Shown here: piece by piece, positions 1,397-60,345 of the stretch
Numbering within the stretch: position 1 is the stretch's first letter
Layout of the letters: the number at the start of each line of letters is the position of its first letter
NCBI GenBank assembly: GCA_028554795.2
Contig: CM068841.1
Coordinates: 23,927,308-23,991,307, forward strand
Source of the DNA: Sinohyriopsis cumingii
Lineage: Eukaryota > Mollusca > Bivalvia > Unionida > Unionidae
Length of the DNA: 64,000 bases
Reading direction: 5' to 3'
The notes under the pieces: generated by a model
Databases searched by the model: none
Seen by the model: only the letters and a program-made list of their open reading frames with translations
What the model was told of the DNA's origin: nothing
Position numbers and translations under genes: made by a program

Positions 1397-1645
1397 TAGC
1401 AGCAGGGAGAGTGAACAGATCACTTGCTTATAAGTCCATTTTTAAAAAATAAAATTTCATACGCAAAAAATGAAAAATATAAGAGTAATAACGTCACAAC
1501 GAAGCCTCCAACTAAAACCGAGAGTTTCTCTTATTCGGGTAGCTCATTTTTTTACTTCATCTTTCTCGTTCGTGTTTTCAAAATTTGTAATGTTTTTATT
1601 TACCCGTTGGACAATCATTTTTGGTCACACCCTACTGCTGTAGTG
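1397..1645 (+). repeat. Left terminal inverted repeat of element A
   Basis: Matches the reverse complement of 17464-17713 along its length, beginning TAGCAGCAGGGA and containing the shared block AAAACCGAGAGTTTCTCT at 1514-1531. The inner end (CACACCCTACTGCTG) is roughly the inverse of the outer end, so the TIR is itself bounded by short inverted repeats. A related block ends element C (47544-47788). Confidence 0.85.
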
Positions 1646-1677
1646 TGTGAGTAATTAAATCATTATTATATCAATAA

Positions 1678-2650
1678 TGGAATATCGCACAGCTAGATTA
1701 GTTTGAGACTGACAAGATGCAGTTAAGAAATATATCCCTGTTCCTAATGCTGTCAAGCAACAAAGACAAGCGAGTCAGGACTCTCAGGTGGAATTTACAG
1801 AGGGTTCAGAACAAATATTTAAAAAAATTGTCGAACCAACAAAGAAAATGACTACAGCAACTGAGCCGGCTCAAACAGCTGAGACATTGCCTGTTGATTA
1901 TTCTGGCCGTCTTCAAGCAGGTCAACCACCACCGCAGCAATCTCCTCAACCATAACCGGAAGTTCAACCAAAACCTATGCCAGGAGTTAGAACTAACATT
2001 ACATATAAATTTACGCCGGAAGGTTTTGCCGCTATCAAAGACCCAGACCAAAAACTTGATATTGCTGCGTTTGGATATTACAATCGAGATAATTATGTAA
2101 AACCCGAATATGTTAAAACTTTTTAAAAAATGCCGATTGGATTAGATATGTAGATCACGTCGCTAATAATATTTAGCAAATCAGACCTGAAGAAGATGTC
2201 AATAATTTTAACATTTTTAACCAGAAGGTAAATGAGCATATTAAAGAATCAATACAAGAGAGGAGACATAAAGAAAACGAAATGAAGTTGCAATTTGAAA
2301 AAGCAAAAGCAGAAATAAGACAAAAAGAAAAAGAAGGTTTGGAACTTGAAGAAATTAAACGATGGAAGAATTGACGTTCTTCACCAAGTAAAAAAGAATC
2401 AGAAGAAAGAGCTGGAAGTGCTCTTGTTACTCGAGGAAGTGGTCTTATTTTTCCATGTCGTAGCAACGTTCTTGCCGATTTTGATAGACTACAAATTCTA
2501 ACTGGCAGAAAACGAGCTGGTAATAATTCACCGGAAATTGTTAATGAAGCAGCTAATATTTGTCAACGATTATTTACAGGCGGTATCATGGACATTAATG
2601 TGTATCGGTCTCTTATAGGTGAAATCGTTTATGACTATCAAAGTTATTGA
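1678..2650 (+). pseudogene. ORF X, charged coiled-coil protein remnant
   Basis: First gene inside the left TIR, about 30 bp from it. Reading from ATG 1678 to TGA 2648-2650 gives ~324 codons with about five internal stops and one net frameshift. The N-terminal half is Gln/Pro-rich; then comes a segment with NITYKFTPEGFAAIKD; then a strongly charged helix-prone stretch (about 2225-2375, many Glu, Lys, Arg); and a conserved-looking tail ending GEIVYDYQSY. It is absent from copies B and C, which lack this end. The function is unknown. By position it may be a structural or scaffold protein, but that is inference. Confidence 0.55.
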
Positions 2651-2682
2651 GTGTATACAATTAGATCAGTGAAAAAATTAGA

Positions 2683-3120
2683 TGATTATACATAATGCCC
2701 AACGTGGACCTGTAATGGTCAGGGTGATATATTCGCGATTACCTACGTATAAAGTTACCTGCGTTACAGGGTCTATTTAGAAGGATAGACCCAAAAGTAA
2801 TATAAATCGCAAAGCAGATGAGAATGAAAGATATTGACGTTGTTCGTGATAAAGGTATTGGTGCTGTTGGTGATGTTTCTAGTAAAACATTCTCGGCAGT
2901 AAAGGGTAGAGTAGCACTATTAATACGAAGAAAACACCAGCCAGTACAATTGCCCAGCACAGAAGGTACACCTGCAAATATTAGTTAAATAATAAATCAA
3001 GCTGCAAATCAAAAACTAGCAGAGTTGGCTGGTGTACGCATATCAGAAAAAGAAAAAGAAAAAAAAATATAACTGCTAGTCTGATAGCAGGAAGTGGTCT
3101 GCTTGCTAGACAACAATTAT
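2683..3120 (+). pseudogene. Gene Y, small alanine-rich protein remnant (copy A)
   Basis: Matches the copy at 60014-60345 in element C. Shared elements are LFRR, the segment MKDIDVVRDKGIGAVGDV (MKDIDDVRENGIGAVGDI in C), KTFSA, and IINQAANQKLAELAGV. It lies directly before the candidate major capsid gene in both copies. The upstream part (QRGPVMVRVIYSRLPTYK, 2702-2755) is repeated in fragment D at the right window edge. In-frame stops and a frameshift break it. The composition (small residues, amphipathic helix-like) and the position fit a minor capsid or membrane-active virion protein, but no known domain is recognised. Confidence 0.6.
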
Positions 3121-3125
3121 AAAAA

Positions 3126-4437
3126 ATGTTCAAACGAATATTTGATTCAGCATTAGACATGGATGCGCCAGTTCTCAAACATAAATCTGTCCGCGATTAT
3201 CAGTATAATTATCATGATTCATGTGTACCTAATGCACAAGGAAGAATCGCATTACAGGTTCAGGATAAAAGTAGATTTTTCTTACCGGCTGAGGCATTTA
3301 TTGAAGTAGAAGGTAGACAGTTGAGAGCAGACGATACACCATACGGAAATAGTGATCGAGTGGGTTTAGTTAATAATGGCGTCATGGCGTTATTTAACAG
3401 CGACGTATATACATCATTGACGGAAGAAATATTGAATCACACCAGGAAAATGTCGTCGTTGCCACGTCGATACTTGGCTTTGGAAGATACAGCGATGGTG
3501 ACTCTAGGTCAGTTGGTCTGTCAATGATGTTTGCAAAGGATGCCACTGATTTTCTAGAAAACAGAAACGTGACAATAAACGTAGATGTAACTGAAGTTGC
3601 ATCGAAGAAGGAAAATTTCAACTTGGGATTTACAACCCATCGAACAATGTTGAATATCAATGAAAAGTTCTTTTACGCGATTCCACTGTCTCATATCATT
3701 GAATTTTGCAGAAATGTTAGAAAAGTTATATATGACGATGGAACTTGTCAGAAAAGCCACCCAACATTGATGCGATACGGCGTGATGCTGTCGTTGGTGT
3801 TTGTAAAGTAACACTAACAAAACTGTCGCTGTGGATGCCAGTAATAATTCCATCGATCAACGAAGTACAACGGTTACTTTCTTTCATGAATAAGGGCTGT
3901 CAATCAGTATTATGATGGTAGACAATGATTACAGACAGTATTCAAAACAATGCTGCTGGGTTATTCACATGGCATATAGCACCACATCAGGGAATATAAT
4001 CATCAGGAAAATGCAATAGTAGATTCGCAGGAATGAAATCAAATCATATTTGACGCTTTTGGGGTTAGTGATGTTTCTTTGAGGATAAAAGTACATCAAG
4101 AACCTTCTAAAAGCGTTTCGCTAAATTTTGAACACAATCATTTAGCACGTGCATATCATCGTTTGATGACATCCATGGGACGTGATCAGAATGTTGATTC
4201 TGGTTTGCAGATATCTCAGCTGGATTTCACATCGCTGCATCCGATCTATTATTTTTCATTGGAACATTTGGATTTGTTCAGACAATCAGTCGTTCATATA
4301 CACTTAAAAGGTCGTGTAGCTCGGCTGCCCGCTGGCGATATAGAGCAATCCTTATTATTCGCTCAGATAAAACAATGTAGCTTGAAGGTGTAGTTGGATG
4401 AATGAGAATTATTTTTGCCCCAGTATAAACATTTTAA
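3126..4437 (+). pseudogene. Candidate major capsid protein (copy A)
   Basis: About 437 codons from ATG 3126 (MFKRIFDSALDMDAPVLKHK) to a stop near 4437, in several frames. The first 133 codons are open; later blocks include NFNLGFTTHRTMLNINE and IPLSHIIEFC (around 3620-3710) and DFTSLHPIYYFSLEHLD (4222-4272). Element C has the same gene (58650-59976) in the same neighbourhood. I recognise this as a conserved uncharacterised protein family of animal repeats. The length, the lack of any other large structural ORF and its place near the protease make the double jelly-roll capsid the best guess. That is inference from context, not a seen fold. The copy is broken by at least four frameshifts or stops. 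Confidence 0.6.
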
Positions 4438-4459
4438 TTAAATCGCTCATGATATTATA

Positions 4460-4860
4460 ATGTCATATCATTATGTTAGTGCCAGTCTGACTCCTGGTCA
4501 CATTAAAAAACTTAATCAAAATCAGGAAAAATCTGTGGAATAAAAATCACTAAAACGATCAGATCACAGATGGTCAAAATATAAGATCATTGTCAGCACG
4601 TCAACTCGAGCATTCCAGTGACACCAAGCAATCAAAAACAGGCGTTAAACTTAATCTTTGTGCGAGCGCCATTACAGATTCAATCAGACTGACAGTATAT
4701 TTCCGCTTCCTGCAGCTATACCAGCATTACAAGCCGTTGCGGCTTCAGCTGTTGCAAAAGCAGCTGCACATGTCAATGTTAGAACTGCTGCTAAAATGGC
4801 ATTAAATAAAATAACAGGAAAATGATATAAAGACTTCTAAAAAAGGCAAAAGTGTCTTAG
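4460..4860 (+). pseudogene. Gene Z, small Ala-rich structural-type protein remnant (copy A)
   Basis: Starts MSYHYVSASLTPGHIKKLNQ 22 bp after the capsid gene ends. It then changes frame and carries VKLNLCASAITDSIR, followed by an alanine/valine-rich segment, and ends with Lys-rich residues. Element C has the same gene at 58222-58627 (VRLNLSAGVIKDAIK, then KTSKRMGK). A short N-terminal motif, a glycine/alanine-rich helix and a basic tail are usual for small minor capsid proteins of adenovirus and Polinton relatives, but a specific homology cannot be shown here. Confidence 0.55.
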
Positions 4861-4897
4861 ATTGCCAGGAACCCCTCATAGGTACGGATAAGGTCTG

Positions 4898-6498
4898 TGG
4901 GGTTTGGTAGGTTTGGGGTGGGGTGCTCCCAATATATTATTTAAATTACTATGGAAGTGCCAGCCAGGCTCGATGTTGCATAAAGTGAACTTTGTGATAG
5001 AAAGAGGTAAAGCTCCCAGCCCCCGGCCTGCAGTGCCGACAGTTAAATTATTAGGAACATAAAGGTGAAATTCAAAAGAATAGCAATTTCATACAATTCA
5101 ATATCAAATGATAATTTCCTAATCACTCTTCTCCCTCTCGATCAAGCGATAGCTTATTACATCCTGTGATTTATAATGTGAAATCGCCTTCCACCTGTCC
5201 TTGTTTTCTACTCATCTGTATCTATCCTTTCCCGCCAATTCCTTATCTACTTCCGACCGACCTCCTATCTCCTACTCATTGACTGCTCTTCACCAATTTC
5301 TCCTCCACGACTCATTTTCCTCATCCACCTTGATTTTGCTCTCCGACTAGCTTCGATTCACAATCGACTTCTCCACTAGTCTCTATTCCGTGTACCTCCA
5401 AGAGACTCGGGACTCACCACATCGGAAGTCTGTCCCCTAAAAGCTTCATGTGAAAACACAAGGACGTTAACAAATTTCCTTAACCATCTCGTCTCACGCT
5501 AAACCAACAATCAATCATCAGATAAAGGCTATTACCATTTTCTGTCACGTATTCGTGCACATCGAAATACCCATCCGCTCTTGTATGTTAAACAACGTCG
5601 TAATAAAAGCACGGTATCAACTACTTAATCATACAGGCATCAATAATTACGTCAAACTGTACACATATATTATTAATCTCAGTATACTGAACAAAAGCAC
5701 AGCAATTATACTCATCTCTGTACATTACACTCCCACAAGTGTACACAAATATTCAAATATCCATATTAACTAATTTTACACACTGTAACCATTTTCCAAA
5801 GTTACAATTTAATTCAACAGTTGCAAAATCAAGATTATCACATGAATAAATGCACTAGTTTACTACGAATTAACCAAATAGAGAATTACAATATTAATTC
5901 TAACTACGAGCTAGCAATCTATATAATTCTTTACATAATCATAGCTCATTTCTCAAATACGCATGTAAATTAAACACTACAAAGGTAGTTCTACGTACTA
6001 ACTAGTCTAGTAATGAAGGATACATGCTGCACATAAATACAATTACAATGCCGTAATATTTTGCAACAATCCAATAAATAACTCACTGACATTTACGAAG
6101 CCTTGTCTTTCTTTTGAATTTCCCTAGTTGTCCAGCCAATTCACTTCTTAGCACGATGTCTCACAATTACTGGTGGTTTTTACCCTATTCTGTTAAATTC
6201 GTGTTGAAATACTGACCACGCCCTCTCTCAATTCCGATTGGATATCGATTCTACCCTGTTTTATTCCACTTAGCAGAGAATGCTCCAGCCGTTTGTCAAC
6301 GTGGTGAGATTTACGTCGCCAATAAGGGTCATTTGTTCTTGAACAAATCTTTCAACGTTCACATGTGATTTTTGACAAGCTGAGCTCTCGTAACAATTCC
6401 GAACAGGACCACTATAGCCGCGGAGTCTAACATATACACATGGTTTCTAACCATGTCCTATATTCTTGACTTAAAATATCGTAGCCAGGCACGTAAAA
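4898..6498. mobile_element. 1.6-kb insertion inside element A, unclassified
   Basis: Element C runs continuously from gene Z to the protease, whereas A is interrupted here. The flanks align with C: the left part ends ...GATAAGGTCTG and the right part resumes GTCTGATACTTCC. A 5-bp GTCTG stands on both sides (4893-4897 and 6499-6503) and could be a target-site duplication. The insert begins TGGGGTTTGGTAGG, is pyrimidine-rich around 5100-5560 and has no long ORF. No transposon family is recognised. Confidence 0.55.
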
Positions 6499-6535
6499 GT
6501 CTGATACTTCCAGGAAGACTTCGCTGATCCTTCCT

Positions 6536-6956: not shown

Positions 6957-7719
6957 ATGGTAGATATTTACGGAACATAAAAAGTACGGAATAACTCACG
7001 AAAATGTGAGTAAACATATTAGTGATGAAATATCTGAATTATTAAATCTTGCAAATGTAGATCCAAACCAAGTGGTTACATTTCAAGATCAGCAAGGAAA
7101 ATTAAAAACAGCCTATCTTTCATTGAAAGATATTATAGTTAAAATTGAAAATAGTAATAAATTTAAAAATAAAAAAAAATTAAACCTGATGTTATTATAT
7201 CTACGATCTCAGATAATATTCGTGGTCGAGTACAAAAGTACCATGATACAATGACTGGTTCGGTCAATATGACTATTAAAAAAATCACTGATCTTGGAGA
7301 AACGAAATCAGACAATGACGTAGTAACGAAGAAATTAATCCTTCAAATGATGAACTCAGTTAATAATGAAATGACATCCTTTAAATCTGATTATAATACT
7401 CATGTGCAAACATTTTTAAATTTTCGCAAATGAGTAAATGGAGTTCTTGATAAAAAAATTTGAAAAACAATATTTGTTGATATCAAGCTCTTTGACATAA
7501 AAAATGGCCGACAGTGTGGTATATACGTTAGCGTCTGGGCAAGCATTATGATCACCACTTAAGAAATATATCAAACATCGCGCTGTGGTTACCGGTATAT
7601 AAAGGCTATCAGTAATTGGCGTTAAAACATTTTATGTGTTAGTGATGTAGGAGCAAAACAACGAGGAAACATTTGTAGTTGAACCCGAAGAAACAAAGCT
7701 CGGCTTGATTTACTATTGA
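6957..7719 (+). pseudogene. Gene V, conserved unknown protein (copy A)
   Basis: Starts at ATG 6957 (MVDIYGT), matching MVDLYGR in element C (57700). The best preserved block is HISDEISELLNLANVDPN, then VVTFQDQQGKLKTAYLSL and, after a frameshift, MTIKKITDLGETKSDNDV, a helical stretch and FVVEPEETKLGLIYY. The same order occurs in C. It looks like a fairly long, partly coiled-coil protein. I recognise the family as a repeat-borne protein of animals and have no function for it. A fibre- or spike-like virion protein is possible from the heptad-like middle, but this is a guess. Multiple stops and frameshifts are present. Confidence 0.6.
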
Positions 7720-7761
7720 AGTTTTGAATTAGTCGCTAAATTCCCATCTAACTAAAATATA

Positions 7762-8190
7762 ATGGGCATCAAGATTGATGTTCAACGTTTTTGATAGCAT
7801 CAGTAACGTGAATGGCAAACAAAATTTAAAAATATCGTTGACGAGTAAACAGTAAAAGTAATTGAAATACCGCAGACATCTAGTTGTTGTGAACATAAAC
7901 GTGGATTCGGCGTCTACTGTTATCGCCTGAACAGGTATATTGCTATCAACAATAACAATGACATCACCAGTAATTATAACTATTTGTGTTTCAGCTGCAA
8001 CAAAAATTGCTGGTCTTCTTATATCATCGCAAAAAATTATGCACGTGTACAAATACACAATTGCATGAGTATATAATAAAATTAAAGTTATCTTTGCTGC
8101 TATCACCGAGTCTCGGCGATGAAATAATATTAGATTTTGACTTTACACAGATGACTGGGATTTACAAAGATGCAGTGAATGTGATATAAT
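7762..8190 (+). pseudogene. Gene W, small membrane-type protein remnant (copy A)
   Basis: Begins MGIKIDVQRF and contains, across two frames, a hydrophobic Ile/Val/Ala segment with FVSAATKIAG and a C-terminal helical part with TNTQLHEYIIKLKLS. Element C has a better copy at 56333-56794 (TVITIFVSAAITIAGIP, LNEYIIKL, SSMISSSLQDGMISDAEFT). It is probably a membrane-inserting or virion-internal protein. The end is lost at the SINE insertion (8228). No enzymatic motif is seen. Confidence 0.5.
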
Positions 8191-8227
8191 CCATATCTGA
8201 CATTAATAATAATAATAATAATAATTA

Positions 8228-8482
8228 TTGTTGTTGTTGTTGTTGTAGGGTCTAACGCCATTTTTCATCACACGATAGGCTATACATGGGGGCCAGTATT
8301 AATAGTGGAGGAAGAACCCTGGAAAACCCCAAAAAGAACCACAGACCCACGAGAAGCTACTGGCAAGCTTTCTCACATACCCACATTAGCCGAATCCGAA
8401 ACTCGAACCCACGCAGACAGAGGTGAGATGGCAGTGATCCGTAACGAAGAGCGCTTTAGACCACTCGCCCACTCCGGGCCCC
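8228..8482 (-). mobile_element. tRNA-derived SINE (copy 1)
   Basis: On the minus strand it begins GGGGCCCGGAGTGG with a pol III A-box-like region, then a B box (GGGTTCGAGTTTC type), a central domain, and ends in (TTG)n repeats at 8228. It matches the SINE at 22311-22560 closely. It interrupts element A between W and P, so it inserted after the element. Confidence 0.8.
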
Positions 8483-8499: not shown

Positions 8500-8875
8500 C
8501 AAGCTGGATCTCCCTATTAGCAAATTGTTGGAATTCCCTTGGGTAGTTATCAGATTGAACAAATCAGTGACGAATTTCAGCGCAAAAATGCTATCACTAT
8601 TTACCAACCAACATTACCAGCTGCGGTAGTAATATATTCGCAAGATTATGTTGTAGATATTTATAAATCATCAATCCGACCGGTGTTATGATGGCCTGAG
8701 GTTCTACAAGAATATCAAAAATCATCGGAACCAAAACGAGATGATTATATTTCAGATAAACGATCGTATTGAGTAAATAATCCAAGTTATAAAAAAAATA
8801 TTTTATGGAAAAGATAGAGGTTGAGCCTGACAGTGGTGAAATAATTAATCCATTTCACAGTGATTTATGGTTGTG
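8500..8875 (+). pseudogene. Gene P, candidate minor capsid (penton-like) protein, C-terminal part (copy A)
   Basis: Resumes after the SINE with VGIPLGSYQIEQISDEF, then PAAVVIYSQDYVVDIYKSS and KRDDYISDKRSY. The last two match IEINSLDYAADIYQPSYRS and KRDDSLTDKK in element C (55697-56310), which also keeps the N-terminal half. The arrangement (a short capsid-surface type protein downstream of the main capsid and protease genes) and the N-terminal motif in C suggest a minor capsid protein. The assignment is tentative. The N-terminal half is missing here. Confidence 0.5.
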
Positions 8876-8916
8876 ATATGGAAAAAGCAGAGAGTCATAA
8901 TCCAATGAACACAACA

Positions 8917-9583
8917 AAAATACTTTTGATCGTATTAATCGTGTTCACAAGCAATATTTAGACAAATTATGCCAGTTATGTATCGAGTATCTTTTTAACA
9001 TGACGTCAACACAAACAAAATAAGAAATTTTCAATCATCAAACAAATAGAACTTTCGAACCAGTTTATATTTGATATTGAAATTGTTCATCAGAGTATTA
9101 TGCGGGCAGTAATCAAGACTGAAGGTAGATATAATGATGGTACTCCATATAAACAATTATTTATTGATAATTATTTGACTGCAACAAAACCACTAATGAA
9201 AGCAGATTTACAAATATTTAAAATCCTTGATTTAAAGCTGACCAACTAAAAAAATCAGTCAGCGATCTGATCAATGAAAACTTTTCTAAATGTGTCGAAT
9301 CATGGATAAAATCATCACCACCAGCAAGTATTTTCAAACATAACAATGATCCGTACGGTGGAAGCCGTCATATTTCACAGGAACTTGTAAATATTACGTT
9401 AAAGATCGCGGTTAATCTTGTTTGTGATGCAATTGATGACAGTTATCAAATCGATCGTGAAAAATTTAGTCAGGCTCAGCAACGATATATTTTATACACA
9501 TTTACGCCTCAAGTACCTTCTGGATTTTTGATTGTACAAGAACATATTAATCCGGTCTATTTTCGATGTCATACACCGCTATA
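8917..9583 (+). pseudogene. Gene Q, conserved unknown protein (copy A)
   Basis: Reads through NTFDRINRVHKQYLDKLCQ, then TEGRYNDGTPYKQLFIDNYL, SIFKHNNDPYGGSRHISQEL, VNLVCDAIDDSYQID and RYILYTFTPQVPSGFLIVQE. Element C (54950-55600) has the same blocks: KHNNAPYGGGRHI, VCDAIDGRYEVD, RYILDTFTPQVPPSYLIVQE. It is a conserved single gene of the element family with no domain I recognise. It is the last rightward gene before the repeat array. One or two stops and frameshifts break it, but the 3' half (9270-9583) is almost intact. Confidence 0.55.
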
Positions 9584-9795
9584 ATCAAGGATATTTTTCA
9601 AACATTCTGACCGATTGGGACACTTGCTTGATTCGCAACATGAAGTCTTGAAGCTGAATCTGTATATAAGATCATAGATCTTCTCGTTAGTTCTTGATTT
9701 TCAAACCTGGTTCATAATGCGGGAAATAAAAGATATACAACATCATTTATTTGTTAGTGATTCTCGCGAAAATGTCTGGTGTATCATATTTAAAA

Positions 9796-10077
9796 AACGA
9801 AATTTAGTCAGATTTTATGATTGATGGGGTAAAAGGATACACAAAATAACGAAATTTAGTCAGATTTTATCACTGAAGGGGTAATAAGATACACAAAATA
9901 ACGAAATTTAGTCAGATTTTATCATTGATGGGCTAAAAGGATATACAAAATAACGAAATTTAGTCAGATTTTATCATTAATGGGGTAAAAGGATACACAA
10001 ACTAACGCAATTTAGTCAGATTTTATAACTGATGGGGTAAAAGGATGCACAAAATAACGAAATTTAGTCAGATTTTA
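9796..10077 (+). repeat. 52-bp tandem repeat array (copy A core)
   Basis: Five to six units with starts near 9796, 9848, 9900, 9952, 10004 and 10056, each beginning AACGAAATTTAGTCAGATTT and containing GATGGGGTAAAAGGATACAC. Regular 52-bp spacing and near identity show recent or homogenised repetition. Confidence 0.9.
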
Positions 10078-11960
10078 AAATTTGATGTGTTTTACCAATA
10101 TTTTTCAGTTTATCAAACAGTGTCATCAAATTGATGTGTATGTTACATAAATGAAATCAGATTATCAAACAATTTCATCAAAGAGATGGGCATATTACCC
10201 AAATTAAATCAGATTGTCAAATAATTTCATCAAATTAATAGGTATGTTGCCAAAAATAAATCAGATTATCAAACAGTTTATCAAATTAATGGGGTAAATA
10301 ATATTCAAAATATTTTTTAAAAATTTCATCGCAAAAGAAAAACTTACATTATAATAATTTTACCCTTTGAATTTGTCAAGGAACAAATAAATATATCTTA
10401 ACAGAATTTATTTTTTCCTCATTTTCATCCAGATTTCAGGTAAATGATATTTAAAATAACAAAAATCACTCAAATTTCGTGATTTGATGGGTTGAATGGT
10501 ACTTAAAATCATTGAAAATCAGTCTTATTTGATAAATGTATAGGGTATATGGTACTTAAAATATTTAAAATGAGTCAGATTGTATAATTTGATGGGGGTG
10601 AATGGTACTTAAAATAATAAAAATCACATCGACAACAGAAAATTAGATAAAAATATAATATAATCTCAATAAATTGTATAATCTGAATAATTATTATTTT
10701 CAGAATAAATATTATTATCAGAATGAATATTAATATCAGAAAAAATGCTATTATCAGAACAAAAATTATAATCCTATTCTTCACCGATTCTCAAATTTGA
10801 TGGGGTATATGCTACTAAAAATTGATAAAATCAGTCAGATTTTAAAATTTTATAGGATATGTGGTACTTAAAGTAATAAATATAGGACTGATTTTATAAT
10901 TTGCTAGGGTATGTGGTACTCGTAATTGTGAAAATCAGACAGATTTTATAATTTGCTAGGGTATACGGTACTCGTAATTGTGAAAATCAGACAGATTTTA
11001 TAGTTTGACAGGTTGACTGTTACTCATAATTGTGAAAATCCTACTGAAAACAGAAAAGAACATGATAAAAAATATAATCGAAATTATTATCAGAATGAAT
11101 AAAAATAAATATCATCAGTATTATGAAATAATATTGTTGTTATTATTATCGAATGATCTTTGCAAATCTGTAAAATAGCTGATTTTGGAAGGGTCACATC
11201 CCACGCAGTTCTCTAGGTGACTTTGATTATTTGTTAATAAATTCTTACGAAACATTGTCTGAAGTCAATTTTTATCTGAATCTGGTTAAAGTTCGACTAA
11301 AAAGCGAACAAATAGAAGAAAAATATTATCAATAAATCCTAAAATGACTAGAACTGCGTGAGGTTTCACCTTTCAAAAATCAGTAACATAACAGATTTTC
11401 TAAATCAAATCGACTAAAATAAATTAAAAAACGATGAAATTTAGTGAAGGATTTCAGATTTTTTTAAAAGAAATATAGCATCATTAATAAGTATTATCAG
11501 AATAAAAAGATAATTTTCAGAATCAGAATAACTTTCATGGTTAGAAAATTATATTATCAGAATTTTAAAAAATTCTCTTAAGAATCAGAATAAATATTAT
11601 TGTCAGAATAAATATTATAATCTGAAAAATATTATTATCAGAATAAAAAAATATTCTTCAATGATTTTCAAATTTGTAGGGATAAATGTTACTCAAAATA
11701 ATAAATATTGGACTGACTTCATAATTTTATGGAATAAATGTTACTAAAATAATAATTTTATGACTGATTTCATAATTTGTTTGGATAAAGGATGCTAAAA
11801 AATAAGAATAGGACTAAATTAAAATAAATATTATCATCAGAAATAACTCTAGCATAATTATTATCAGATATAATAAAAACTGAATCAGAAAGAAAAATAA
11901 ATAAATATTATCATCAGAAATAAATCTGAATGAGAATAAATATTAAAATCATGTTCTTTT
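10078..11960 (+). repeat. Degenerate continuation of the element's tandem-repeat region (copy A)
   Basis: Diverged units carry the same core (GGTACTTAAAATAATAAAAATC, ATCAGTCAGATTTTATAATT), separated by a second AT-rich motif of the type AATATTATTATCAGAATAA (about 10640-10770, 11090-11160, 11480-11960). The reverse complement of both motifs fills the equivalent place in element C (53720-54860). There is no ORF of note. The region lies between the 3' ends of gene Q (plus) and gene R (minus). Confidence 0.75.
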
Positions 11961-16275: not shown

Positions 16276-16319
16276 TAATAATAATAATGATTGGTTGATT
16301 AATTACCGGCTCATAATAC

Positions 16320-43627: not shown

Positions 43628-43659
43628 TATGATACTAATCGGCCGACTAATTAACGACC

Positions 43660-47788: not shown

Positions 47789-47799
47789 TTTTATACAAA

Positions 47800-51060: not shown

Positions 51061-51061
51061 A

Positions 51062-52017
51062 AATGAGTTAAGCTGCAGATGAATGATGGTAAAACTGAGG
51101 CCATTCTGATCACAACACAAAGACTTTCTCATTCACATCCTTTACCTCAAACAATAAATATCAGTAACGCCAACACTAAATTCACACAATCAGTACGAAA
51201 GCTAGGTGTTACTCTGGACAGTACTCTTACTCTCACATTGCACCAACATGTCACGAACATATGCAAGGCTGCATATCTTGAGCTGAGACGCATCAGCTCA
51301 ATTTGCAAATATCTTTCAGTTGATGCCACTAAAAACTTGTGTGTTCATTAGTACTTTCAAGACTGGACTATTGTAACTCAGTTCTGTCTGGTTCATCTCA
51401 ATATCTACTCCAGAAGCTTCAAAAAGTTCAAAACATAGCTGCTCGGATCATACTTAGAGTACCACGATCAGAGCACCCCTCCCCGCTGCTCTATACCCTA
51501 CACTGGCTATCCATTCGATCCAAAATCAAACACAAAATTTGTTCTCTGTGCTACATTTCACTGTCGGACTCTAGTCCAACATACCTATCTGACCTCACCC
51601 ATGTATACAAGCCAGCAAGATACGTACGCTCCTCTTCTGACAATCGTATGCTCATTATTCCCACTATGAAAACAAAGTCATATGGACAGCGTTCTTTTGC
51701 ATACCAGGGCCCATCAACGTGGAATGAATTGTTCATTGAACTTAGACACAAAGACACAGTGATCACATTCAAGAGTGCTCTCAAAACTAACTTATTTCGA
51801 CTGCAAGAACAAACTTAAAGACATAATAATGTTTCCTATCTGAAATATTCTCAGCATGTTTTTTATTTTTTAATGTTTTTCTAATTTCATGTTTTTTGTT
51901 TTTATAATAATATTATTATGTTTATTATCTTATAGGTGTTGTCTAATGTTGTTAAGCGCTTAGAGCTTCTAAAGATTAGGCGCTATACAAAGTCCTCATT
52001 ATTATTATTATTATTAC

Positions 52018-52056
<39 letters not shown>

Positions 52057-52125: not shown

Positions 52126-53318
52126 TATTTGGCAAGCATTATGAATGTAAATAACTCTGTCAAGGACACGCAGAGCAGTTAAAGAGTAACCTCGCATATA
52201 TTTGTACAACATTCTCTTATAAAGAAATTATATTTTTGGTTGGTTTTCTCTCTTTCGATACAACAAACCAATTCGGCGTTACAAACGACTAATGTTTTCA
52301 ATATTTCACTCCTTAAGTAAAATACGAACACTCCTATAGCAAGACAGCGTAATTTAATGTTTTATGACTTCGTCGATGATACCATCCTTGACAGCATCAT
52401 GATATAATCCTTGACAGAGTCAATGCGGATAACTGACAAATAAATGTAGAGCCTGTAATCTTATAAATATTTTATATTTACAAAAAAAAATGTATTTTGG
52501 TTGTATTTTAAAAGAAACATTATACTAATTTTCTGAATCGGTTACGTTTTTTTTTTTTTGGGGGGGGGCTTCATCTAGGTTTTGTCAACTATAATAATTA
52601 AGAAAATCAACAGTACAAAGTCACGCCCATTGCGTGAGCAACTTTGGATTTCTAGGTATTAGGGTATATAGCATAGGACCCGTTTTATGAAGGGGTAGTC
52701 CTAAATGTTCGCTTTAATGGACAAACAAACCTTCCCACCATGTCGCCTGGTGTTGGGTGCTCTTTCGCAAATCCCCGGGGTTGATTTTAGGGGTGGGTGT
52801 TCAGAAATGTTGAAAGTATATTTATAGTGCCGTCCGTAGAACTAAGTTAATTAAGTCCATTTTGTTCAGTTCATGGTTTAAAGATTGTATGTCGTACAGT
52901 CCATAGTTTACAGAATGTATATATTGCAGTCCATAGTTTTAAGATTGTATGTTGTGCAGTCCATATAACTAAATTAAATTAATGTTTTGCTGTCCATAAA
53001 CTTAAGTTAGATACATTATATGTTGTGCAGCCCATATATTTAAAATTTACTGTGTATCTAGCGTTCCATTTGAACTTGTCTGAATGTCGTTTGTCAACCT
53101 AGAATTTCACATGGGTGTTGGGCCGTCCTTAGAGCTAAGATTGAAATATGTTTGAGCTCTGAACCTGAGAGAATATCGTTTCTCACTCTATTGATTTACA
53201 TGGGGGTTGTGTTGTGTAATATTTTTTATTTTAAATACATATTTATTATAAAATGAATTACGAAAATATTAATGATATTATTTCTGAAAGTTAAACATTA
53301 AAACATGACTGTATAAAC
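52126..53318. other. Region in element C where the polymerase N-terminus is expected
   Basis: No polymerase motif can be read. It contains a G-run (about 52560) and four or five degenerate ~50-bp units with the word GCAGTCCATA (about 52850-53040). The polymerase N-terminal part has been lost or replaced, as in A. Confidence 0.5.
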
Positions 53319-53685
53319 ATGTCTGATGAAATGAATCCTGAACAAATTATTTGTGATTTTGAATCATTACGACAACGAAAATTTGTAGATAGATATACAC
53401 GACCAGCAGAATGCAGATTTATTAAGCTGTTTCAATAATCTATGTTATAATCATTGGGAACAATCAAAGATAGAGAATTTGAACAATTCGTATCACTCAG
53501 GTGCAATTGAAAAATTAGATCAGAATTATCTCATGAATACGAGACAATTGAGAAAGATTATGCCAGATGCTGAAACGATCCATGGTAAAAATGAATGCGC
53601 TGTCCGTGACTGCAGTGAAAGTAGCAATAACGTCACTGATGAAGGTGAAAGCTATGGCGACAGCAAACTTTTCACCTTTTTCTAG
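53319..53685 (+). pseudogene. Gene R (copy C)
   Basis: From ATG 53319: MSDEMNPEQIICDFESLRQR, KFVDRYTRPAECRFIKLFQ, then stops and a frame change to NSYHSGAIEKLDQNYLMNTR, QLRKIMPDAETIHGKNE. It matches the intact copy at 12067-12378. It lies beside the repeat array and is transcribed against the capsid-side genes, as in A. Confidence 0.6.
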
Positions 53686-53719: not shown

Positions 53720-54860
53720 TCACCAGTACTTGTAAAAGTGTTTACTCCAATATAATATAAATTCTGATAATAATATTTATTCTGATTCAGATTTATTTTT
53801 ATTCTGATATATAATTATTATTTTTAGTATTATTTACAGATCAAATTCGATAATCGGTAAAGAATAAGACTTCTACTTTTATTCTGTTAATAATATTCAT
53901 TCTGATTCTGAAAATAATACTTTCTTTTTCTGATAATACTATTTATGATGTAATTTTCTGTTTGAGTAGGATTTGTAGAACGTTTAGTACCATATATCCC
54001 ATCAAGTCATAAAATCATTCCTACAAATATTACCTAAAGTACCATTTACCCATCAAATTATAAAATCTGACTGATTTTAACAATTCCGAGTACCATATGC
54101 CCAATCAAAATTGTGAATTAGTGAAGAATAAGATTATAGTATTTATTCTGATAATAATATTCATTCTGATAATGATATTTATTATGCAATATTCTGTTTT
54201 CGATGGGTTTTTTTAATTATTTTAAGTACCATTTACCCCATAACATTATAACATCTGACCGATTTTTAGGACCTAAAGTACCATATGCCGCATCAAAATC
54301 ATAAAATCTGAGTGATTTTTATTAATTTACGTACCATTTACCTGAAATCTGGACGAGAATAAGTAAAACAAATTCTGTTTTAATATATTCATTTTGTTCC
54401 TTGGCAAATTCAGTGGTGAAATTCTGATTTGTAAATTATTTTTCTTTTTCAATGAGATTTTATTTATTAATTTGAGTATTATTTACCGCATCAACTTCAT
54501 GAAACTGTTTGATAATCTGATTTAATTTGGGAAATATACCCATCTATTTGATAAATTAAAATTAATGATAAAATTATTGAACATAAGACTGTTAATGAAA
54601 TTGACTAATGATCTTAAAAATTATGAGTAATATTCCCATCCAATTGATGAAGGTGTTTGATAATCTGATTTAATTTGGGTAATATACCCATCAAATTATA
54701 AAATCTAAATAATTTAAGTTATTTTTGCTATCGTTTTACCCCATCAATTACAAAATCTGGCTGCCTTCTCTGTGTCAAGGTTGAATATCATATACCTGAA
54801 ATCTGGGCGAGATTAAGTAAAAATCAAATTATGTTATATATTTTTTCCCTGATTAGGAAT
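53720..54860 (-). repeat. Element tandem-repeat region (copy C)
   Basis: Reverse complement of the A array: units with CCCATCAAATTATAAAATCT, GACTGATTTTAACAATTCCG and GTACCATTTACCC, and AT-rich ATTCTGATAATAATATTTAT blocks. More diverged than the 52-bp core of A, and without its clean periodicity. Confidence 0.75.
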
Positions 54861-54949
54861 CATAACTGAAAATCAATCACGAGTGTGAATATCTGTGATC
54901 TTAAAATCGTTAAGATTTCACATACATATTCAAATTATAAACTGCATAT

Positions 54950-55600
54950 CTCACATCAAATCAAGTGTCTGGATTGGTCATTAAGTTTGCATGTATCCTT
55001 GATAGCAGCCAATTCAAAAATTGCAGGTAAACCGGATTAACAGGTTCTTGTACGATCAAATAGCTAGGAGGCACTTGAGGTGTAAATGTATCTAAGATAT
55101 ATCTCTGCTGAGTCTAACTAGATTTTTCAAGATCAACTTCATATCTGCCATCAATTGCATCACATACAAGAATAACTGCGATTGTTGATGTTATCTTGAC
55201 AACGCCTGGTAAAATATGACGACCACCACCATATGGAGCATTGTTATGTTTGAGAATATTTGGTGGTGGGGTTATTTTTCTCTATGACTCGACGATTTTA
55301 GGAAAATATTAATTGATGACGTTGTCGAGTGATTTCTTCAGCTCATCAGCGGCAATTGCTAGCACTATGAATTTTGCTAATTGTTCTTCTGTAATCGTAT
55401 ATGCCTTCAGGAATAATTGCTTAATTGTTGAGACATTATATACGTTATCACCATGGTAAATTATATTTTGATGACAGTTTTATTGGCTGCTAAAAATCGG
55501 ATATAACCTGATTTAAATGTTGTATTATTACGATCATCTGCTCTTTTATATCATCGCTGTAATATTGTGTGACGCTTAAAAATAAATGTTGGTATTGATT
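54950..55600 (-). pseudogene. Gene Q (copy C)
   Basis: Shares with copy A: YIRFLAANKTVIK, TIKQLFLKAYTITEEQ, ADELKKSLDNVIN, ILKHNNAPYGGGRHI, VCDAIDGRYEVDLEK, RYILDTFTPQVPPSYLIVQE. Two independent decayed copies keep the same protein sequence, which shows it was a selected gene. No known domain is recognised. Broken by stops and frameshifts. Confidence 0.55.
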
Positions 55601-55696
55601 GAGCATATATTTATATTATAACTTGATATCTCTGGAATATACATCAATTTGAGTTATTCATCATCATTAATGTCTGTATAGTAAGCAAAACTAAAT

Positions 55697-56310
55697 TTAA
55701 TTTATAGGAAACCTTGTATCATCAGACGCAATACAATTAAGTTCCGTAGTCCATTGTTCTTCTTTTCGATACTCTGGACGTTTTATAAATATTTTCTTAT
55801 CCGTGAGGGAATCATCTCGTTTTAGTTCTAGTGGTCTTTGATATTTTAGCGGGATTTCTGACTATCCTAGCACGCTTCGGTATGACGGTTGATATATATC
55901 TGCAGCATAATCGAGCGAATTTATTTCTATTGCCGCTGATAATGATGGTTCGTTATCAGTGATAGCTATTTTAAATTTGTTTCTGCGCATACATTCATGA
56001 TTGATTTGTTCAATCCGATAACCCCGACAACTTGCCAATCTTGAGTTCCATCTGGTTTATTTTTGTGTGCAAATACCAGTGAGTTATTTGCTTGTAATCC
56101 ACCGAATGATTTTGATCTAATATTTTCCCAACTATGATTTGCTCGTAATTGCGCTAGCGTTATTTCATTCGCGCGAATTGCAGTTGGAAAGTTGACGCTG
56201 AACTCAGGCTTGTTTGACCTTGCTGATATTATCGTGGTATTTGAAGGAGTTGTGTTAGCGACGATCTGATGCCTTAATTCCTGAGATGACGACATTATTG
56301 TTCTTATCAT
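55697..56310 (-). pseudogene. Gene P, candidate minor capsid (penton-like) protein (copy C)
   Basis: ATG 56310; the first 114 codons are open: MIRTIMSSSQELRHQIVANT, then PEFSVNFPTAIRANEITLAQ, HSWENIRSKSFGGLQANNSL, and PDGTQDWQVVGVIGL. After a frame change it continues IEINSLDYAADIYQPSYRS, KRDDSLTDKKIF and DDTRFPIN before the stop. The pattern of a short N-terminal arm, a VNFPTAI segment and a Trp-rich strand is one I associate with repeat-borne minor capsid proteins. By analogy with Polintons this would be the penton. The middle part in A (VGIPLGSYQIEQISDEF) is missing or altered here. Confidence 0.5.
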
Positions 56311-56332
56311 TTTCTAAATCGGACTTAGATTC

Positions 56333-56794
56333 TCATACAGTTATTGCTTCGTCATTCTTCCTAATCATTTATGTGAACTCAGCATCTGATATCATTCCAT
56401 CTTGAAGACTTGACGATATCATCGAAGATAATTTGGAATATACTAGCGTCCCTGTAAGTAACTTTATTATATATTCATTTAATTTCGTACTTGTGCACAT
56501 ACATATTTTTGCGATGAAATTAGGAATACCAGCAATTGTTATTGCAGCTGAAACAAAAATTGTTATAACTGTTGGTGATGTCATTTTTATTGTTGATAGC
56601 ACTACGCCGGTTCCAGCGATAACAGATGACTCAGAGTACACAATTATGTAGACAATAACATGTCTGCGATATTGTTTTACTTTTACTGTACAATCATCAA
56701 TTCTATTTTTCACTTTGGTTTGCTACTAATGTACTTAATTGTATCTGTAATGTTGCGCTGAAACATCACGTTCAGTGTCGACTGGGGAGATCAT
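56333..56794 (-). pseudogene. Gene W, membrane-type protein (copy C, best preserved)
   Basis: ATG 56794 (MISPVDTERDVSAQHYRYN). After stops it is open from 56713: NRIDDCTVKVKQYRRHVIVY, the hydrophobic Gly/Ile-rich segment SSVIAGTGVVLSTIKM and TVITIFVSAAITIAGIP, then STKLNEYIIKLLTG and SKLSSMISSSLQDGMISDAE. One or two membrane-length hydrophobic stretches are followed by an amphipathic helix. The family is common in virus-like repeats. A role in the virion or in membrane interaction is inferred. Confidence 0.55.
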
Positions 56795-56820: not shown

Positions 56821-57700
56821 CTAATTCAAAACACCAGTAGTAAATCAAGCCGAGCATTTTTATTCCTGTTCCAATATAAATGTTTCCTCGTCATTTTGCT
56901 CCAATATCAATAACATAGATCCAGAGGATCCAGTTAGTAGATAACGCCGTAGTATTGTGGTGTATATTCTAAATGTTGTAACGCCAAGTTCTGAGAACTG
57001 TATGTACCGGTAACCTCAGCGCGACGTTTGATAGATTTATTGAGTAGTGACCATAATGCATGTCCAGACGCTACTGTATATATTACACTGTCTGTGTTAT
57101 TTTTGATGTCTGTGAGTTTAATACCAATAAATGCTGGATTTCCAAAAATGTAAATAATTCCGTTTATTCTCTTGCGATAATTCGAAAATGTATTTGCATG
57201 AGCATTATAATCAGATTTAAATGTGGTCATTTCAGTTTGAATTGAAACTAACGAGTTCATCATTGAGAGGTTCCTATTGTTGATATATTTCGTATTTCCA
57301 GCGTCATTGTATGATTCTGGTTCTCCAAGATCAGTACTTTAATTATTATACATGCTGAGAATACCAGTCTATGTATCACCGGAGTTTTTTTTACCCGACC
57401 ACGAATACTATATAATATCGTTCACATAATAATACCAGGCTTAATTTGTCCATTACTGTCAAACACAGCAATGCTATTTTAAGTTCTTCCAATAATTCTA
57501 TCAATAATATCATGCGATGAAAGATTACTTGTCTTTAATTTTCCTTGCCTATCTTGAAATACAAACACTTCATTTGGATCTAAATTTGCAAGATTTAATA
57601 ATTCTGATATTTCATCACTAATCTATCTTCTCACATTTTCCTGAGATATTCCGATAGTGGTTTGTTTTTGTACAGAAGATCTTCCATAAAGATCTACCAT
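56821..57700 (-). pseudogene. Gene V (copy C)
   Basis: ATG 57700: MVDLYGRSSVQKQTTIGISQ then ENVRR, a stop, ISDEISELLNLANLDPNE, VFVFQDRQGKLKTSNLSS. After frame changes a 109-codon open stretch from 57263 reads MMNSLVSIQTEMTTFKSDYN, AHANTFSNYRKRINGIIYIF, SVIYTVASGHALWSLLNKSI, TGTYSSQNLALQHLEYTPQY. It ends at TAG 56821-56823. The long, partly helical layout is consistent with a trimeric fibre-like or internal virion protein, but no domain is known. Confidence 0.55.
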
Positions 57701-57717
57701 TACACTTTAAGATCTGT

Positions 57718-58139
57718 TTAAAACGACAGTGGACGGTTATACCGTCTACTTGTATAATTGTGTACGACTTTACGGGATGGTATTGTTGATGATTGTATAG
57801 CGTCGAGTCCAGCAATTACTTCAGGCCACATATTGGCCGATTGGTTATTGTCTGTGTTGGTAATGTTGAATACCTGACTGCAGGAATAGTACGTATTCTG
57901 CCGACATATTTTACAAATTCTTTCATTGGTGCCAAGCAATAAGAATTGTAATAAATACTTCCACGTGGATCAATCACGTATGCAACCCAACGAGTGCCAG
58001 GGCGGGAGCTTTTATCGAGATTAATGATATTTGTTTCAACATTATTTGGTTGTTTTGATAAATGTTCATGCATAAAAACACCTCTGAAATGTTTGATATT
58101 TAATTTTTTAACAGCAGCAAGTAAATCAAAATTGGACAT
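57718..58139 (-). pseudogene. Adenovirus-like maturation protease (copy C)
   Basis: ATG 58139: MSNFDLLAAVKKLNIKHFRG then VFMHEHLSKQPNNVET, IINLDKSSRPGTRWVAYVID, GSIYYNSYCLAPMKEFVKYV, LPTQTITN and PICGLK. Order and spacing match the C5 adenain family: His segment, Asp segment, Gln segment, Cys. The catalytic His position is Arg (GTRWVAY) and the Asp position Asn (YYNSY), while the Cys segment (PICG) is present. Copy A has the reverse: His and Asp present, Cys lost. A frameshift near the C-terminus adds EVIAGLDAI-type sequence. Confidence 0.8.
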
Positions 58140-58221
58140 AGGATGAAGACGATTTGCGTTTTACAAAGTGTCCCGGGAAGTCTCAGACATTTTCCGTATC
58201 AATGATGGGTTCTTGGTAGTC

Positions 58222-58627
58222 TTAGACCTTGCCCATTCTTTTGGAAGTCTTTATTCCGTGACATGCTGTTTTCTTTAATGCCATCACAGCAGAAGTTCCA
58301 ACATCACCAACTGCAACCGATTTTGCAACAGCAGGGGATGCAGCGGCTATTAACTCTGGTTTAGCTGCAAGAAGTGAAAATATACCACCTGTTTTAATTG
58401 CGTCTTTAATGACACCCGCAGAAAGATTAAGTCTAACGACAGTCTTTGATCGTGTGGCCTCATTTAAGTGCCAGAGTTGACATACTGACAGTGATAGCAT
58501 ATTTTCACTACCTGTGATTTGTTCTTTTATTAGTCATATTTTTATTCCACAATACCTTTCTGACACTGGTTATAGTTTATTTAATCTGACTAGGAGTCAG
58601 AGTAACAATAACACGATGATATGACAT
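58222..58627 (-). pseudogene. Gene Z (copy C)
   Basis: ATG 58627 (MSYHRVIVTLTPSQIK, then stop). Open from 58500: LNEATRSKTVVRLNLSAGVI, KDAIKTGGIFSLLAAKPELI, AAASPAVAKSVAVGDVGTSA, VMALKKTACHGIKTSKRMGK. An alanine-rich amphipathic helix with a basic tail. In A the gene has the same neighbours. Likely a small virion protein by position. Confidence 0.55.
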
Positions 58628-58649
58628 TATAATATCATGAGAGATTTAA

Positions 58650-59976
58650 TTACATGATTTCTACTGGGTCATCAATAACTCTCATTCCTCCAATAATACC
58701 TTCTTGTAACATTGTTTTATCGCTGAGTATAACAGAGATTGCTTTCTAACCATCAGAAATAGGTCGAGCTACACGATTTCGGAAGTGTATATCAACGACA
58801 GATCGCCTGAAGAAATCCAGGTGTTCCAACGAAAAGTAATAGATTGGATACAGCGTTGTGAAATCCTGCTTAGATATTTCCAAACCAGAATCAACATTCT
58901 GATCGCGCCCCATGAATGTCATCAACCGATTATAAGCACGTGCAACATGATTTTGATCAAACTTCAGCAAAACTTCAGAAGGTACTTAATGTCCGTTTAT
59001 CCTCAAAACAACTCCAAATGTGTCAAATGCCGTTTAATTTCGTTCCTGCGAATCTACTCTGACAATTTCTGAAATGCAATGAATATATGTCGTGATGCTG
59101 ACACTCCCTGATGTGATGCTATATGCCAAATGAATAACGTAGCAGCATTACTTTGAATACTGTCTGTGGTCATTGTCAACTATGATAATGTTCATTTACC
59201 ACACATTGATTCATAAAAGAAAGTAACCATTGTTCTTCACCGATCGATGGAGTCATTACTTGCATCCACATCCACAGCGAAAGTTTTGTTAGCATTACTT
59301 TACAAGCATCAAGTGCATTGGGTCGACATATTGTATCATTTTCTGCCAAGTCCAATGGTGTGTTTAGGTCCAAATATAAATCTTTTTACATTTCTACAAG
59401 ATCTAAATATATGTGATAGTGGAATCACACATGAACAATTTTCTTCTCCATTTAACATAGATCTGCGTTCGGCAAATCCTAAGTTTAAATCGTCATTCAT
59501 CGATGCATTTGCGTCCCCAGCTGCATTTAGTGTCACGTTTATACTCCCGGGGTGATCAGTGGTATCCTTTACAAACATCATTGACGGACCAGCTGACCTC
59601 GAGAAATCATCGCTGTATCTTGCCAGACATAGTATCTTCGTGTCAACGTCGACGTTTTCCAGGCATGATTCAAAAGTGTTTCAGTCAATCATGTATATGA
59701 CACTGCTAAATAATGCCATAACACAATGTTAACAAAACCAGGTCGATCTAAAAGTCCGTACGCTGTATAATCTGCTTTCAAAAGTCTGCCTTCGATCTCA
59801 ATAAATGCCTTAGCGGGTAAGAAATATATGCTTGTATCCTGAACTGGTAATTCGATTATTCCACGTGTTTGATATACACGTGCGTCATAAGAATAATATT
59901 GATAATCACGCACAGATTCATGTTTGAGAACTATCGCATCCATGTCAAATACTGGATCAGATATACGTTTGAACAA
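58650..59976 (-). pseudogene. Candidate major capsid protein (copy C)
   Basis: Begins at the equivalent of A's start codon, here TTG (KLFKRISDPVFDMDAIVLKH). Blocks: ESVRDYQYYSYDARVYQTRG, FLPAKAFIEIEGRLLKADYT, DDLNLGFAERRSMLNGEE, IPLSHIFRSCRNVKRFIF, SKQDFTTLYPIYYFSLEHLD, FFRRSVVDIHFRNRVARP, and the end KTMLQEGIIGGMRVIDDPVE. About 442 codons, like copy A. The C-terminal part is better preserved here than in A. The loss of ATG and several frameshifts mark it as dead. The capsid assignment is inferred from size, position and family recall. Confidence 0.6.
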
Positions 59977-60013
59977 TTTATTAAAATTATTATCGTTAAA
60001 CACAAATACTACT

Positions 60014-60345
60014 TCATGCAATTTTATTTCCTGCAATCAGACTAGCGTTATATTTTGTTTCTGATAGTGGTACACTAGCTAACTCTGTTAGTTTTTTATT
60101 TACAGCCTGATTTATTATTTTACTGACATTCACTGGCATAGCTTCAGTCTGGATAATTTTACTGATTGCTGAGAATGCTTTGCCAGCAATATCACCCACA
60201 GCACCAATACCGTTTTCACGAACATCGTCAATATCTTTCATTCCCATTTGCTGTGCAATCAGTACTGCTACTGGGGCCATCCTTCTGAATAGACCCTGAG
60301 CAACATCAACGAGTCTATCTCCAAAGGTAACCGATGGACTTGACT
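60014..60345 (-). pseudogene. Gene Y (copy C, C-terminal part)
   Basis: Reads GDRLVDVAQGLFRRMAPVAV, LIAQQMGMKDIDDVRENGIG, AVGDIAGKAFSAISKIIQTE, NVSKIINQAVNKKLTELASV, SETKYNASLIAGNKIA and a stop. The 88 codons from 60280 are unbroken. The region upstream of 60345 no longer matches element A, so the copy is truncated here. Confidence 0.6.

What the first reader, a model, noticed from the sequence alone, without database searches (positions are those of the whole stretch)
1397..60345. A family of Polinton-like elements with an unusual gene set, three copies in 60 kb
The sequence shows TIRs, an rve integrase, an A32-type ATPase, an adenain-like protease and a candidate capsid, which are Polinton/Maverick hallmarks. 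Canonical Polintons encode a protein-primed family-B polymerase without a fused helicase and no PLA2-like protein. Here the polymerase is fused to an SF1 helicase and an HNH-like tail, a PLA2-like gene sits beside the integrase, and a tandem-repeat array and genes Q, R, V and W are shared. I recognise some of these as unassigned repeat-borne protein families in animals and fungi; whether the whole element has been described is not decidable here.
Basis: partly seen in the sequence, partly recalled or inferred. Interest (0 to 1): 0.9.

Follow-up and report, generated by a model that had tools for sequence, protein, structure and literature searches.

The report
Mussel Polintons with a polymerase-helicase fusion
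The window holds three decayed copies of a virus-like jumping element that is abundant, and recently active, in what is probably the pearl mussel genome; it joins the usual capsid, protease, packaging and integrase genes of animal Polintons to a fused DNA-copying machine so far described mainly from protist elements, so it is a new mixture of known parts, not a new kind of thing.

Summary
The window contains one full-length element (A, 1398-17712, about 250-bp terminal inverted repeats), one nearly full copy (B, 60331-47544, reverse) and a right-half fragment (C, 39696-44825), collinear and full of stops and frameshifts. Other copies in the same genome, including a young subfamily with open frames, let the genes be read in pieces without repair. 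They encode a double-jelly-roll capsid, adenain-type protease, fibre-like protein, A32 ATPase, rve integrase, a parvovirus-type PLA2, and one open frame of 1,199 codons with PolB-like motifs, an SF1 helicase and HNH. Its novelty claim is too strong: pPolB-SF1-helicase fusions with a C-terminal HNH are published as "Tlr1-like helicases", and PLA2-like lipases are published for some Polintons. The tandem array is not a family feature. What I did not find in the held literature is this replicase together with the animal Polinton gene set. Replicase relatives are annotated in sea slugs and mycorrhizal fungi. Verdict: new variant of a known kind. Weakest point: the polymerase assignment rests on motifs only.

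The parts
1398..1640 (+). Copy A, left terminal inverted repeat (begins AGCAGCAGGG)
   Evidence: 79% to 17713-17464, E 8.7e-51; 11 of 12 ends of other copies printed begin AG[C/T]AGCA or AGCAACA (L004 does not)
1680..2644 (+). Copy A, orf1 (unknown; 356 codons in an intact copy)
   Evidence: tblastn 1e-22
2676..3045 (+). Copy A, orf2 (unknown)
   Evidence: tblastn 7e-24
3321..4398 (+). [quoted passage not shown]
   Evidence: tblastn 1e-116; PF21738 9e-16 in copy L012; fold
4457..4876 (+). Copy A, core-peptide (PX-like) protein; label from recall
   Evidence: tblastn 4e-10
4897..6490 (.). Later insertion inside A, absent from B and from the other copies aligned across it
   Evidence: alignments stop at 4897 and resume near 6490; part of it occurs alone in L014
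6569..6910 (+). Copy A, adenain-type cysteine protease
   Evidence: tblastn 2e-34; Peptidase_C5 0.006-0.008, below cut-off
6967..7746 (+). Copy A, fibre-like protein
   Evidence: Phage_T7_tail 8.1e-7 in an intact copy
7816..8186 (+). Copy A, orf196 remnant
   Evidence: matches of window:56372-56722 and L020:2081-2551; not hit
8203..8482 (.). Short interspersed repeat inserted in A (also at 22276-22559 and 36998-37161)
8527..9674 (+). Copy A, orf494 (possible minor capsid protein, inferred from position)
   Evidence: tblastn 1.5e-35; no Pfam match
9792..11925 (.). Copy A, tandem arrays, mostly of about 52-bp units; not a family feature
   Evidence: not in L022 and L023
12073..12399 (-). Copy A, orf158
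   Evidence: tblastn 1e-13
12991..13098 (-). Copy A, remnant of a free-standing HNH_3 endonuclease gene
   Evidence: HNH_3 9.8e-16 in an intact copy
13094..15356 (+). Copy A, PolB-like/SF1 helicase/HNH protein, residues 426-1198 (N-terminal part deleted)
   Evidence: tblastn down to 1e-100; one 1,199-codon open frame in L023
15357..16270 (-). Copy A, rve integrase
   Evidence: tblastn 6e-101; rve 2.5e-8 in an intact copy
16305..16632 (-). Copy A, PLA2-like protein
   Evidence: tblastn 1e-18; PF08398 3.4e-14 in an intact copy
16658..17452 (+). Copy A, A32-type packaging ATPase
   Evidence: tblastn 5e-55; Pox_A32 1e-13 in an intact copy
17464..17712 (-). Copy A, right terminal inverted repeat
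39696..42818 (+). Copy C, replicase (residues 9-1153, broken)
43400..43630 (-). Copy C, integrase N-terminal part
43655..44005 (-). Copy C, PLA2-like
   Evidence: tblastn 2e-45
44100..44825 (+). Copy C, A32 ATPase
   Evidence: tblastn 9e-63
47544..47782 (+). Copy B (reverse), right terminal inverted repeat
47797..48200 (-). Copy B, A32 ATPase
48207..48549 (+). Copy B, PLA2-like
48607..49524 (+). Copy B, rve integrase
49531..51068 (-). Copy B, replicase residues 667-1196; its 191-codon piece 50372-50944 matches AAA_19
   Evidence: (2.1e-6)
53205..53546 (+). Copy B, orf158
53752..54727 (.). Copy B, degenerate counterpart of the tandem array
54913..56295 (-). Copy B, orf494
56222..56758 (-). Copy B, orf196
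56869..57703 (-). Copy B, fibre-like
57825..58148 (-). Copy B, protease
58240..58551 (-). Copy B, core-peptide (PX-like)
58689..59737 (-). Copy B, major capsid protein
60026..60331 (-). Copy B, orf2

Best explanation
The three copies belong to one family of about 16-kb integrating, virus-like DNA elements of Polinton layout (phylum Preplasmiviricota) whose replication protein is of the Tlr1-like type: an N-terminal region with a vOTU-like Cys/His pair, PolB-like motifs with a changed motif C (ATDS), a Pif1/RecD-like SF1 helicase and a C-terminal HNH domain. Likely cycle: the rve integrase inserts the linear element with a 5-6 bp target duplication (duplication shown in one copy). Copying is by the fused protein, probably protein-primed, with the helicase separating the strands (inferred). 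The DNA is packed by the A32 ATPase into a double-jelly-roll capsid matured by the adenain-type protease (parts shown, function inferred). The fibre-like protein would bind cells and the PLA2 would open membranes at entry, as in parvoviruses (inferred). Window copies A-C are old, dead insertions; a sister subfamily has amplified recently in the same genome.
Confidence: 0.88

Rival explanations
1. An ordinary animal Polinton/adintovirus with a stand-alone PolB, whose decay or nested insertions only make it look fused to a helicase.
For: The morphogenesis genes, TIR start AG, rve integrase and 5-6 bp TSD are Polinton-like.
Against: A 1,199-codon open frame spans polymerase-like motifs, helicase and HNH in an intact copy, and relatives of similar length and architecture at 36-80% identity occur in other sources.
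Confidence: 0.04
2. Genes of unrelated elements stacked by nested insertion.
For: Nested insertions do occur in A (4897-6490; 8203-8482).
Against: Same order and strand in A, B, C, in 10 of 10 right-half stretches and, as far as probed, in 10 of 10 young copies; one intact copy bounded by TIRs identical over 198 bp.
Confidence: 0.01
3. The element replicates without using the palm domain: the polymerase part is inactive and a host polymerase copies the DNA, with the fused protein acting as helicase and primer protein only.
For: The first Asp of motif C is Ala in all 18 rows of the alignment (17 ATDS, one AIDS) and Thr in one fungal row (P0082); a 2016 paper, as cited in PMC11071308, proposed inactivation for Tlr1-like proteins.
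Against: Motif A Asp, the GKF core of motif B and the second motif C Asp are conserved in nearly all rows shown; PMC11071308 notes active polymerases that lack the same Asp.
Confidence: 0.25
4. Now a pure transposon: the young burst spread by transposition inside the germ line, without virions.
For: At least 106 intact capsid frames with close scores over many contigs of one genome, the 10 sampled being 96-100% identical; no relative in IMG/VR by three scans.
Against: Capsid frames stay open and dN/dS among the 10 sampled copies is 0.37, though biased; fibre and PLA2 frames are open in the stretches sampled.
Confidence: 0.35

Closest known systems
Tlr1 element of Tetrahymena and Tlr1-like helicases of polinton-like viruses and transpovirons (PMC11071308 section 10; PMC12721341 section 15)
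   Same: pPolB-like palm N-terminal to an SF1 helicase, C-terminal homing endonuclease in several, changed first Asp of motif C, candidate vOTU Cys/His; Tlr1 also has rve integrase, DJR capsid and packaging ATPase (passages).
   Different: Tlr1 itself has GIY-YIG (HNH is reported for other PLVs) and lives in a ciliate; a PLA2 gene, adenain-type protease and fibre together with this replicase are not described in the passages read.
Animal Polintons/Mavericks and adintoviruses
   Same: rve integrase, A32 ATPase, DJR capsid, adenain-type protease, TIRs, short TSD (TIR start AG and 6-bp TSD as Polinton marks are recalled).
   Different: Polinton pPolB is TP-vOTU-exonuclease-palm (PMC11071308 passage); here the palm-like region is fused to helicase and HNH.
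Polintons with PLA2-type lipases (PMC4642659 passage)
   Same: Lipase related to the parvovirus PLA2 domain.
   Different: That passage names no fused replicase and no host group.
Cryptophyte PLVs with helicases fused to GIY-YIG or HNH (PMC12220804 passages)
   Same: Large helicase-endonuclease proteins; in one cluster the helicase gene lies next to the rve integrase gene.
   Different: HNH is N-terminal there; protist hosts.
OmPLV helicase-PolB fusion of Oxyrrhis (PMC12721341)
   Same: SF1 helicase and PolB in one protein.
   Different: Opposite order, exonuclease kept, tyrosine recombinase.
'Polintons' of Glomus intraradices (Rhizophagus), named in PMC7805220 (passage)
   Same: The fungal replicase relatives found here may belong to these.
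   Different: No capsid gene was known for them there; their replicase is not described in the passage.

Membership tests
Polinton/Maverick | Terminal inverted repeats | tested here: met
   A: 79% over 251 bp; one intact copy: 198 of 198 bp identical
Polinton/Maverick | About 6-bp target-site duplication | tested here: met
   TTAGG(A) on both sides of one intact copy; not clean in A; six other copies tried, not resolved
Polinton/Maverick | rve-family integrase | tested here: met
   PF00665 2.5e-8; D71, D134, E169
Polinton/Maverick | Protein-primed PolB not fused to a helicase, with exonuclease domain | tested here: not met
   PolB-like region is fused to helicase and HNH; the exonuclease was not tested
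Polinton/Maverick | A32/FtsK-type packaging ATPase | tested here: met
   Pox_A32 1e-13
Polinton/Maverick | Adenain-like protease | tested here: inconclusive
   Peptidase_C5 0.0083, below the curated cut-off, but H, D, Q and C motifs in order
[quoted passage not shown]
   orf494 is a candidate by position only
Tlr1-like replicase | PolB palm motifs A, B, C | tested here: inconclusive
   DMxACYP, IIGKFTQG, VATDS in order; no significant profile or fold match
Tlr1-like replicase | SF1 helicase C-terminal to the palm | tested here: met
   AAA_19 7.5e-10 at residues 767-881; Pif1/RecD2 folds
Tlr1-like replicase | C-terminal GIY-YIG or HNH domain | tested here: met
Tlr1-like replicase | vOTU protease domain | tested here: inconclusive
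   NCVA in all rows shown, HNxHA in most
Tlr1-like replicase | Groups with Tlr1 in a tree | not tested
   No Tlr1 or PLV sequence was at hand
Polinton-like viruses (PLV) | Mostly lack pPolB and rve integrase | tested here: not met
   rve integrase present

The most novel reading that the evidence does not exclude
A separate major lineage of animal Polinton-type viruses, defined by a vOTU-PolB-SF1 helicase-HNH replicase and a PLA2 gene, lives in molluscs, has replicase relatives in arbuscular mycorrhizal fungi, and is amplifying now in a pearl mussel as a capsid-forming agent. It bridges Polintons and the Tlr1/transpoviron group.
Probability: 0.35. Interest if true: 0.8.

Novelty: new variant of a known kind. 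Interest (0 to 1): 0.6.

Why it matters
PMC11071308 proposes that polymerase-helicase fusions of preplasmiviricots traded the exonuclease for a helicase, on protist and giant-virus-associated examples. An animal family with a Polinton-type virion gene set and this replicase would let that trade be studied in intact, recent copies. It may account for part of the unclassified repeats of this mussel genome (23.08% unclassified, PMC10969987), and it gives a concrete test of whether animal Polintons make particles.

Tried and rejected
Codon-position scan of A against B to find frames: too decayed, only scattered windows exceeded z 2.5. Pfam on 20 window pieces: only AAA_19 above its cut-off, hence the move to other copies. 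IMG/VR scans with a capsid piece, the replicase alignment and the capsid alignment: 0 relatives in 3 scans. hhalign of the palm region to phi29 and PRD1 polymerases: not significant, and no better than the helicase region as control. Structure of a 1,160-aa replicase relative: poor; no polymerase fold appeared in its VIA list, which is not evidence of absence. Its BFVD top match H6WBE3 (999 aa, E 9.6e-10, 1,225 columns, TM 0.15-0.17) has no name in the output; I recall, unverified, that it may be a transpoviron protein. PDB sequence search with the capsid piece: 0 hits. TSDs of four old copies and of the L021 and L022 copies could not be resolved. Nested-insertion and ordinary-Polinton readings were rejected (see rivals). 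Literature: 9 searches showed no animal element with this replicase among the papers listed and the passages read. Two papers I wanted are not held, Repbase was not searchable, and the library lacks most subscription journals, so this is weak evidence of absence. Papers seen: PMC11071308 passages and section 10; PMC12721341 abstract, section 15 and passages; PMC3671162 passages and section 7; PMC4642659, PMC4028283, PMC7805220, PMC10120064, PMC11071296, PMC12220804, PMC10294476 and PMC10969987 passages only; PMC2579912 and the others search listing only.
Full report
What is there. The window (G000:C18:23927308-23991307 of a 2.90-Gb assembly) contains three copies of one element. Self-comparison gives TIRs for A at 1397-1640 and 17464-17713 (79%, E 8.7e-51), collinear matches between A and reverse copy B over most of A, and a right-half copy C. 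All three are decayed: the longest stop-to-stop piece is 191 codons, and of 20 pieces scanned only a helicase piece passes Pfam's cut-off.

Reading the genes without repair. A 277-bp helicase piece has 40 scored matches at 89-100% in the genome, the window's own included (2,816 first-look candidates, which is not a copy count). I fetched 20 stretches near 20 of the other 39, ten aimed at right halves and ten at left halves. Stop-to-stop pieces from them gave a double-jelly-roll capsid (PF21738 9e-16), Pox_A32 (1.3e-14) and weak helicase C-terminal matches (0.002-0.007), weak rve (0.0013), PLA2 (1.1e-4) and Peptidase_C5 (0.006). Eighteen of the 20 stretches carry element genes; L014 and L018 carry none. 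In all 10 right-half stretches the order is replicase, integrase (opposite strand), PLA2 (opposite strand), ATPase.

A young subfamily. A capsid piece from L012 finds 109 scored matches: 107 have no stop inside, 61 share one score, and all but the query's own copy are 76-78% identical to it. Only the best candidates are scored, so counts are lower bounds. Stretches from three different copies show open frames for orf1, orf2, the capsid start, PX-like, protease, fibre-like, orf196, orf494, orf158 and HNH_3, and for a 1,199-codon replicase (1,192 from its first Met), integrase, PLA2 and ATPase. Pfam: rve 2.5e-8, PLA2 3.4e-14, Pox_A32 1e-13, HNH_3 9.8e-16, AAA_19 7.5e-10, Phage_T7_tail 8.1e-7 in the fibre, Peptidase_C5 0.0083. 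The PLA2 has a GPG motif and HDxxY; the integrase has D71, D134 and E169 with 34 residues between the last two (motif meanings recalled). The PLA2 frame has no Met ahead of its catalytic region. One copy spans C10:113901745-113917915 (16,171 bp) with TTAGG(A) on both sides and TIRs identical over 198 bp. Ten further copies were probed: 10 of 10 have integrase, PLA2, ATPase or the replicase end where expected; 600-bp capsid probes are 96.0-100% identical (45 pairs, median 97.7%, 3 identical), while on the integrase side two of ten are only about 89% identical to L023. dN/dS in the capsid probes is 0.37 (39 of 45 pairs dN<dS, 3 dN>dS), but copies were chosen by protein score, which lowers dN.

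Mapping back. Fifteen proteins, matched by tblastn, give the window annotation in the parts list; orf103 is not found in the window and orf196 only in B. A lacks replicase residues 1-425, and the HNH_3 remnant abuts residue 426 after a deletion of about 2 kb (compare L003). B lacks replicase residues 1-666 and the left end; C lacks the left half and most of the integrase.

Comparison with print. PMC11071308 section 10 describes Tlr1-like helicases with palm, vOTU, SF1 helicase and C-terminal GIY-YIG or HNH, and notes the same motif C change. PMC12721341 section 15 describes an opposite-order fusion and says the other fusions lack the exonuclease. PMC4642659 (passage) reports PLA2-type lipases in some Polintons. 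PMC12220804 (passages) reports helicase-GIY-YIG and HNH-helicase proteins in cryptophyte elements. PMC7805220 (passage) names Polintons of Glomus intraradices without a known capsid gene; the fungal relatives here may be those. So each unusual part is known; the combination in an animal was not seen in 9 searches of the held library.

Host. Assembly size 2,904,868,851 against 2,904,942,185 bp and 19 linkage groups in PMC10969987 points to Sinohyriopsis cumingii; this is an inference. A word search of that paper's text gave no Maverick or Polinton.

Conclusion.

Noticed in passing
window 4897-6490: A 1.6-kb later insertion inside copy A; much of it (4895-6124) occurs alone in L014 (8576-7419). 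No Pfam match for its 100-codon ORF.
   Followed up: partly
window 8203-8482, 22276-22559, 36998-37161: A short interspersed repeat (80-87% within the window) that also sits in several of the fetched stretches.
   Followed up: no
window 33727-34980 and 61708-62962: A 1.25-kb direct repeat pair (73%), probably another transposable element, with a self-inverted stretch at 61707-61831.
   Followed up: no
window 21923-22835 and 51371-52021: A recent (about 90%) inverted pair with a 161-codon open frame at 51333-51815, no significant Pfam match; it lies within copy B.
   Followed up: partly
L022 6185-6769, L023 8021-8590: Besides the HNH tail of the replicase, the intact stretches carry a separate HNH_3 endonuclease gene (9.8e-16), remnant at window 12991-13098.
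   Followed up: partly
L023 2757-3137: The PLA2 frame has no Met ahead of its catalytic region and starts over the 5' end of the opposite-strand ATPase gene; its start (splicing, non-AUG, frameshift) is open.
   Followed up: no
L015: Two copies of the element's right half lie in the same direction within 10 kb.
   Followed up: no
protein P0023: A capsid relative (40%) with 156 member sequences on a 41-kb contig of unnamed source: perhaps another abundant family.
   Followed up: no
protein P0078: A replicase relative annotated in a bacterial symbiont MAG (Candidatus Thiodiazotropha), possibly host DNA in the bin.
   Followed up: no
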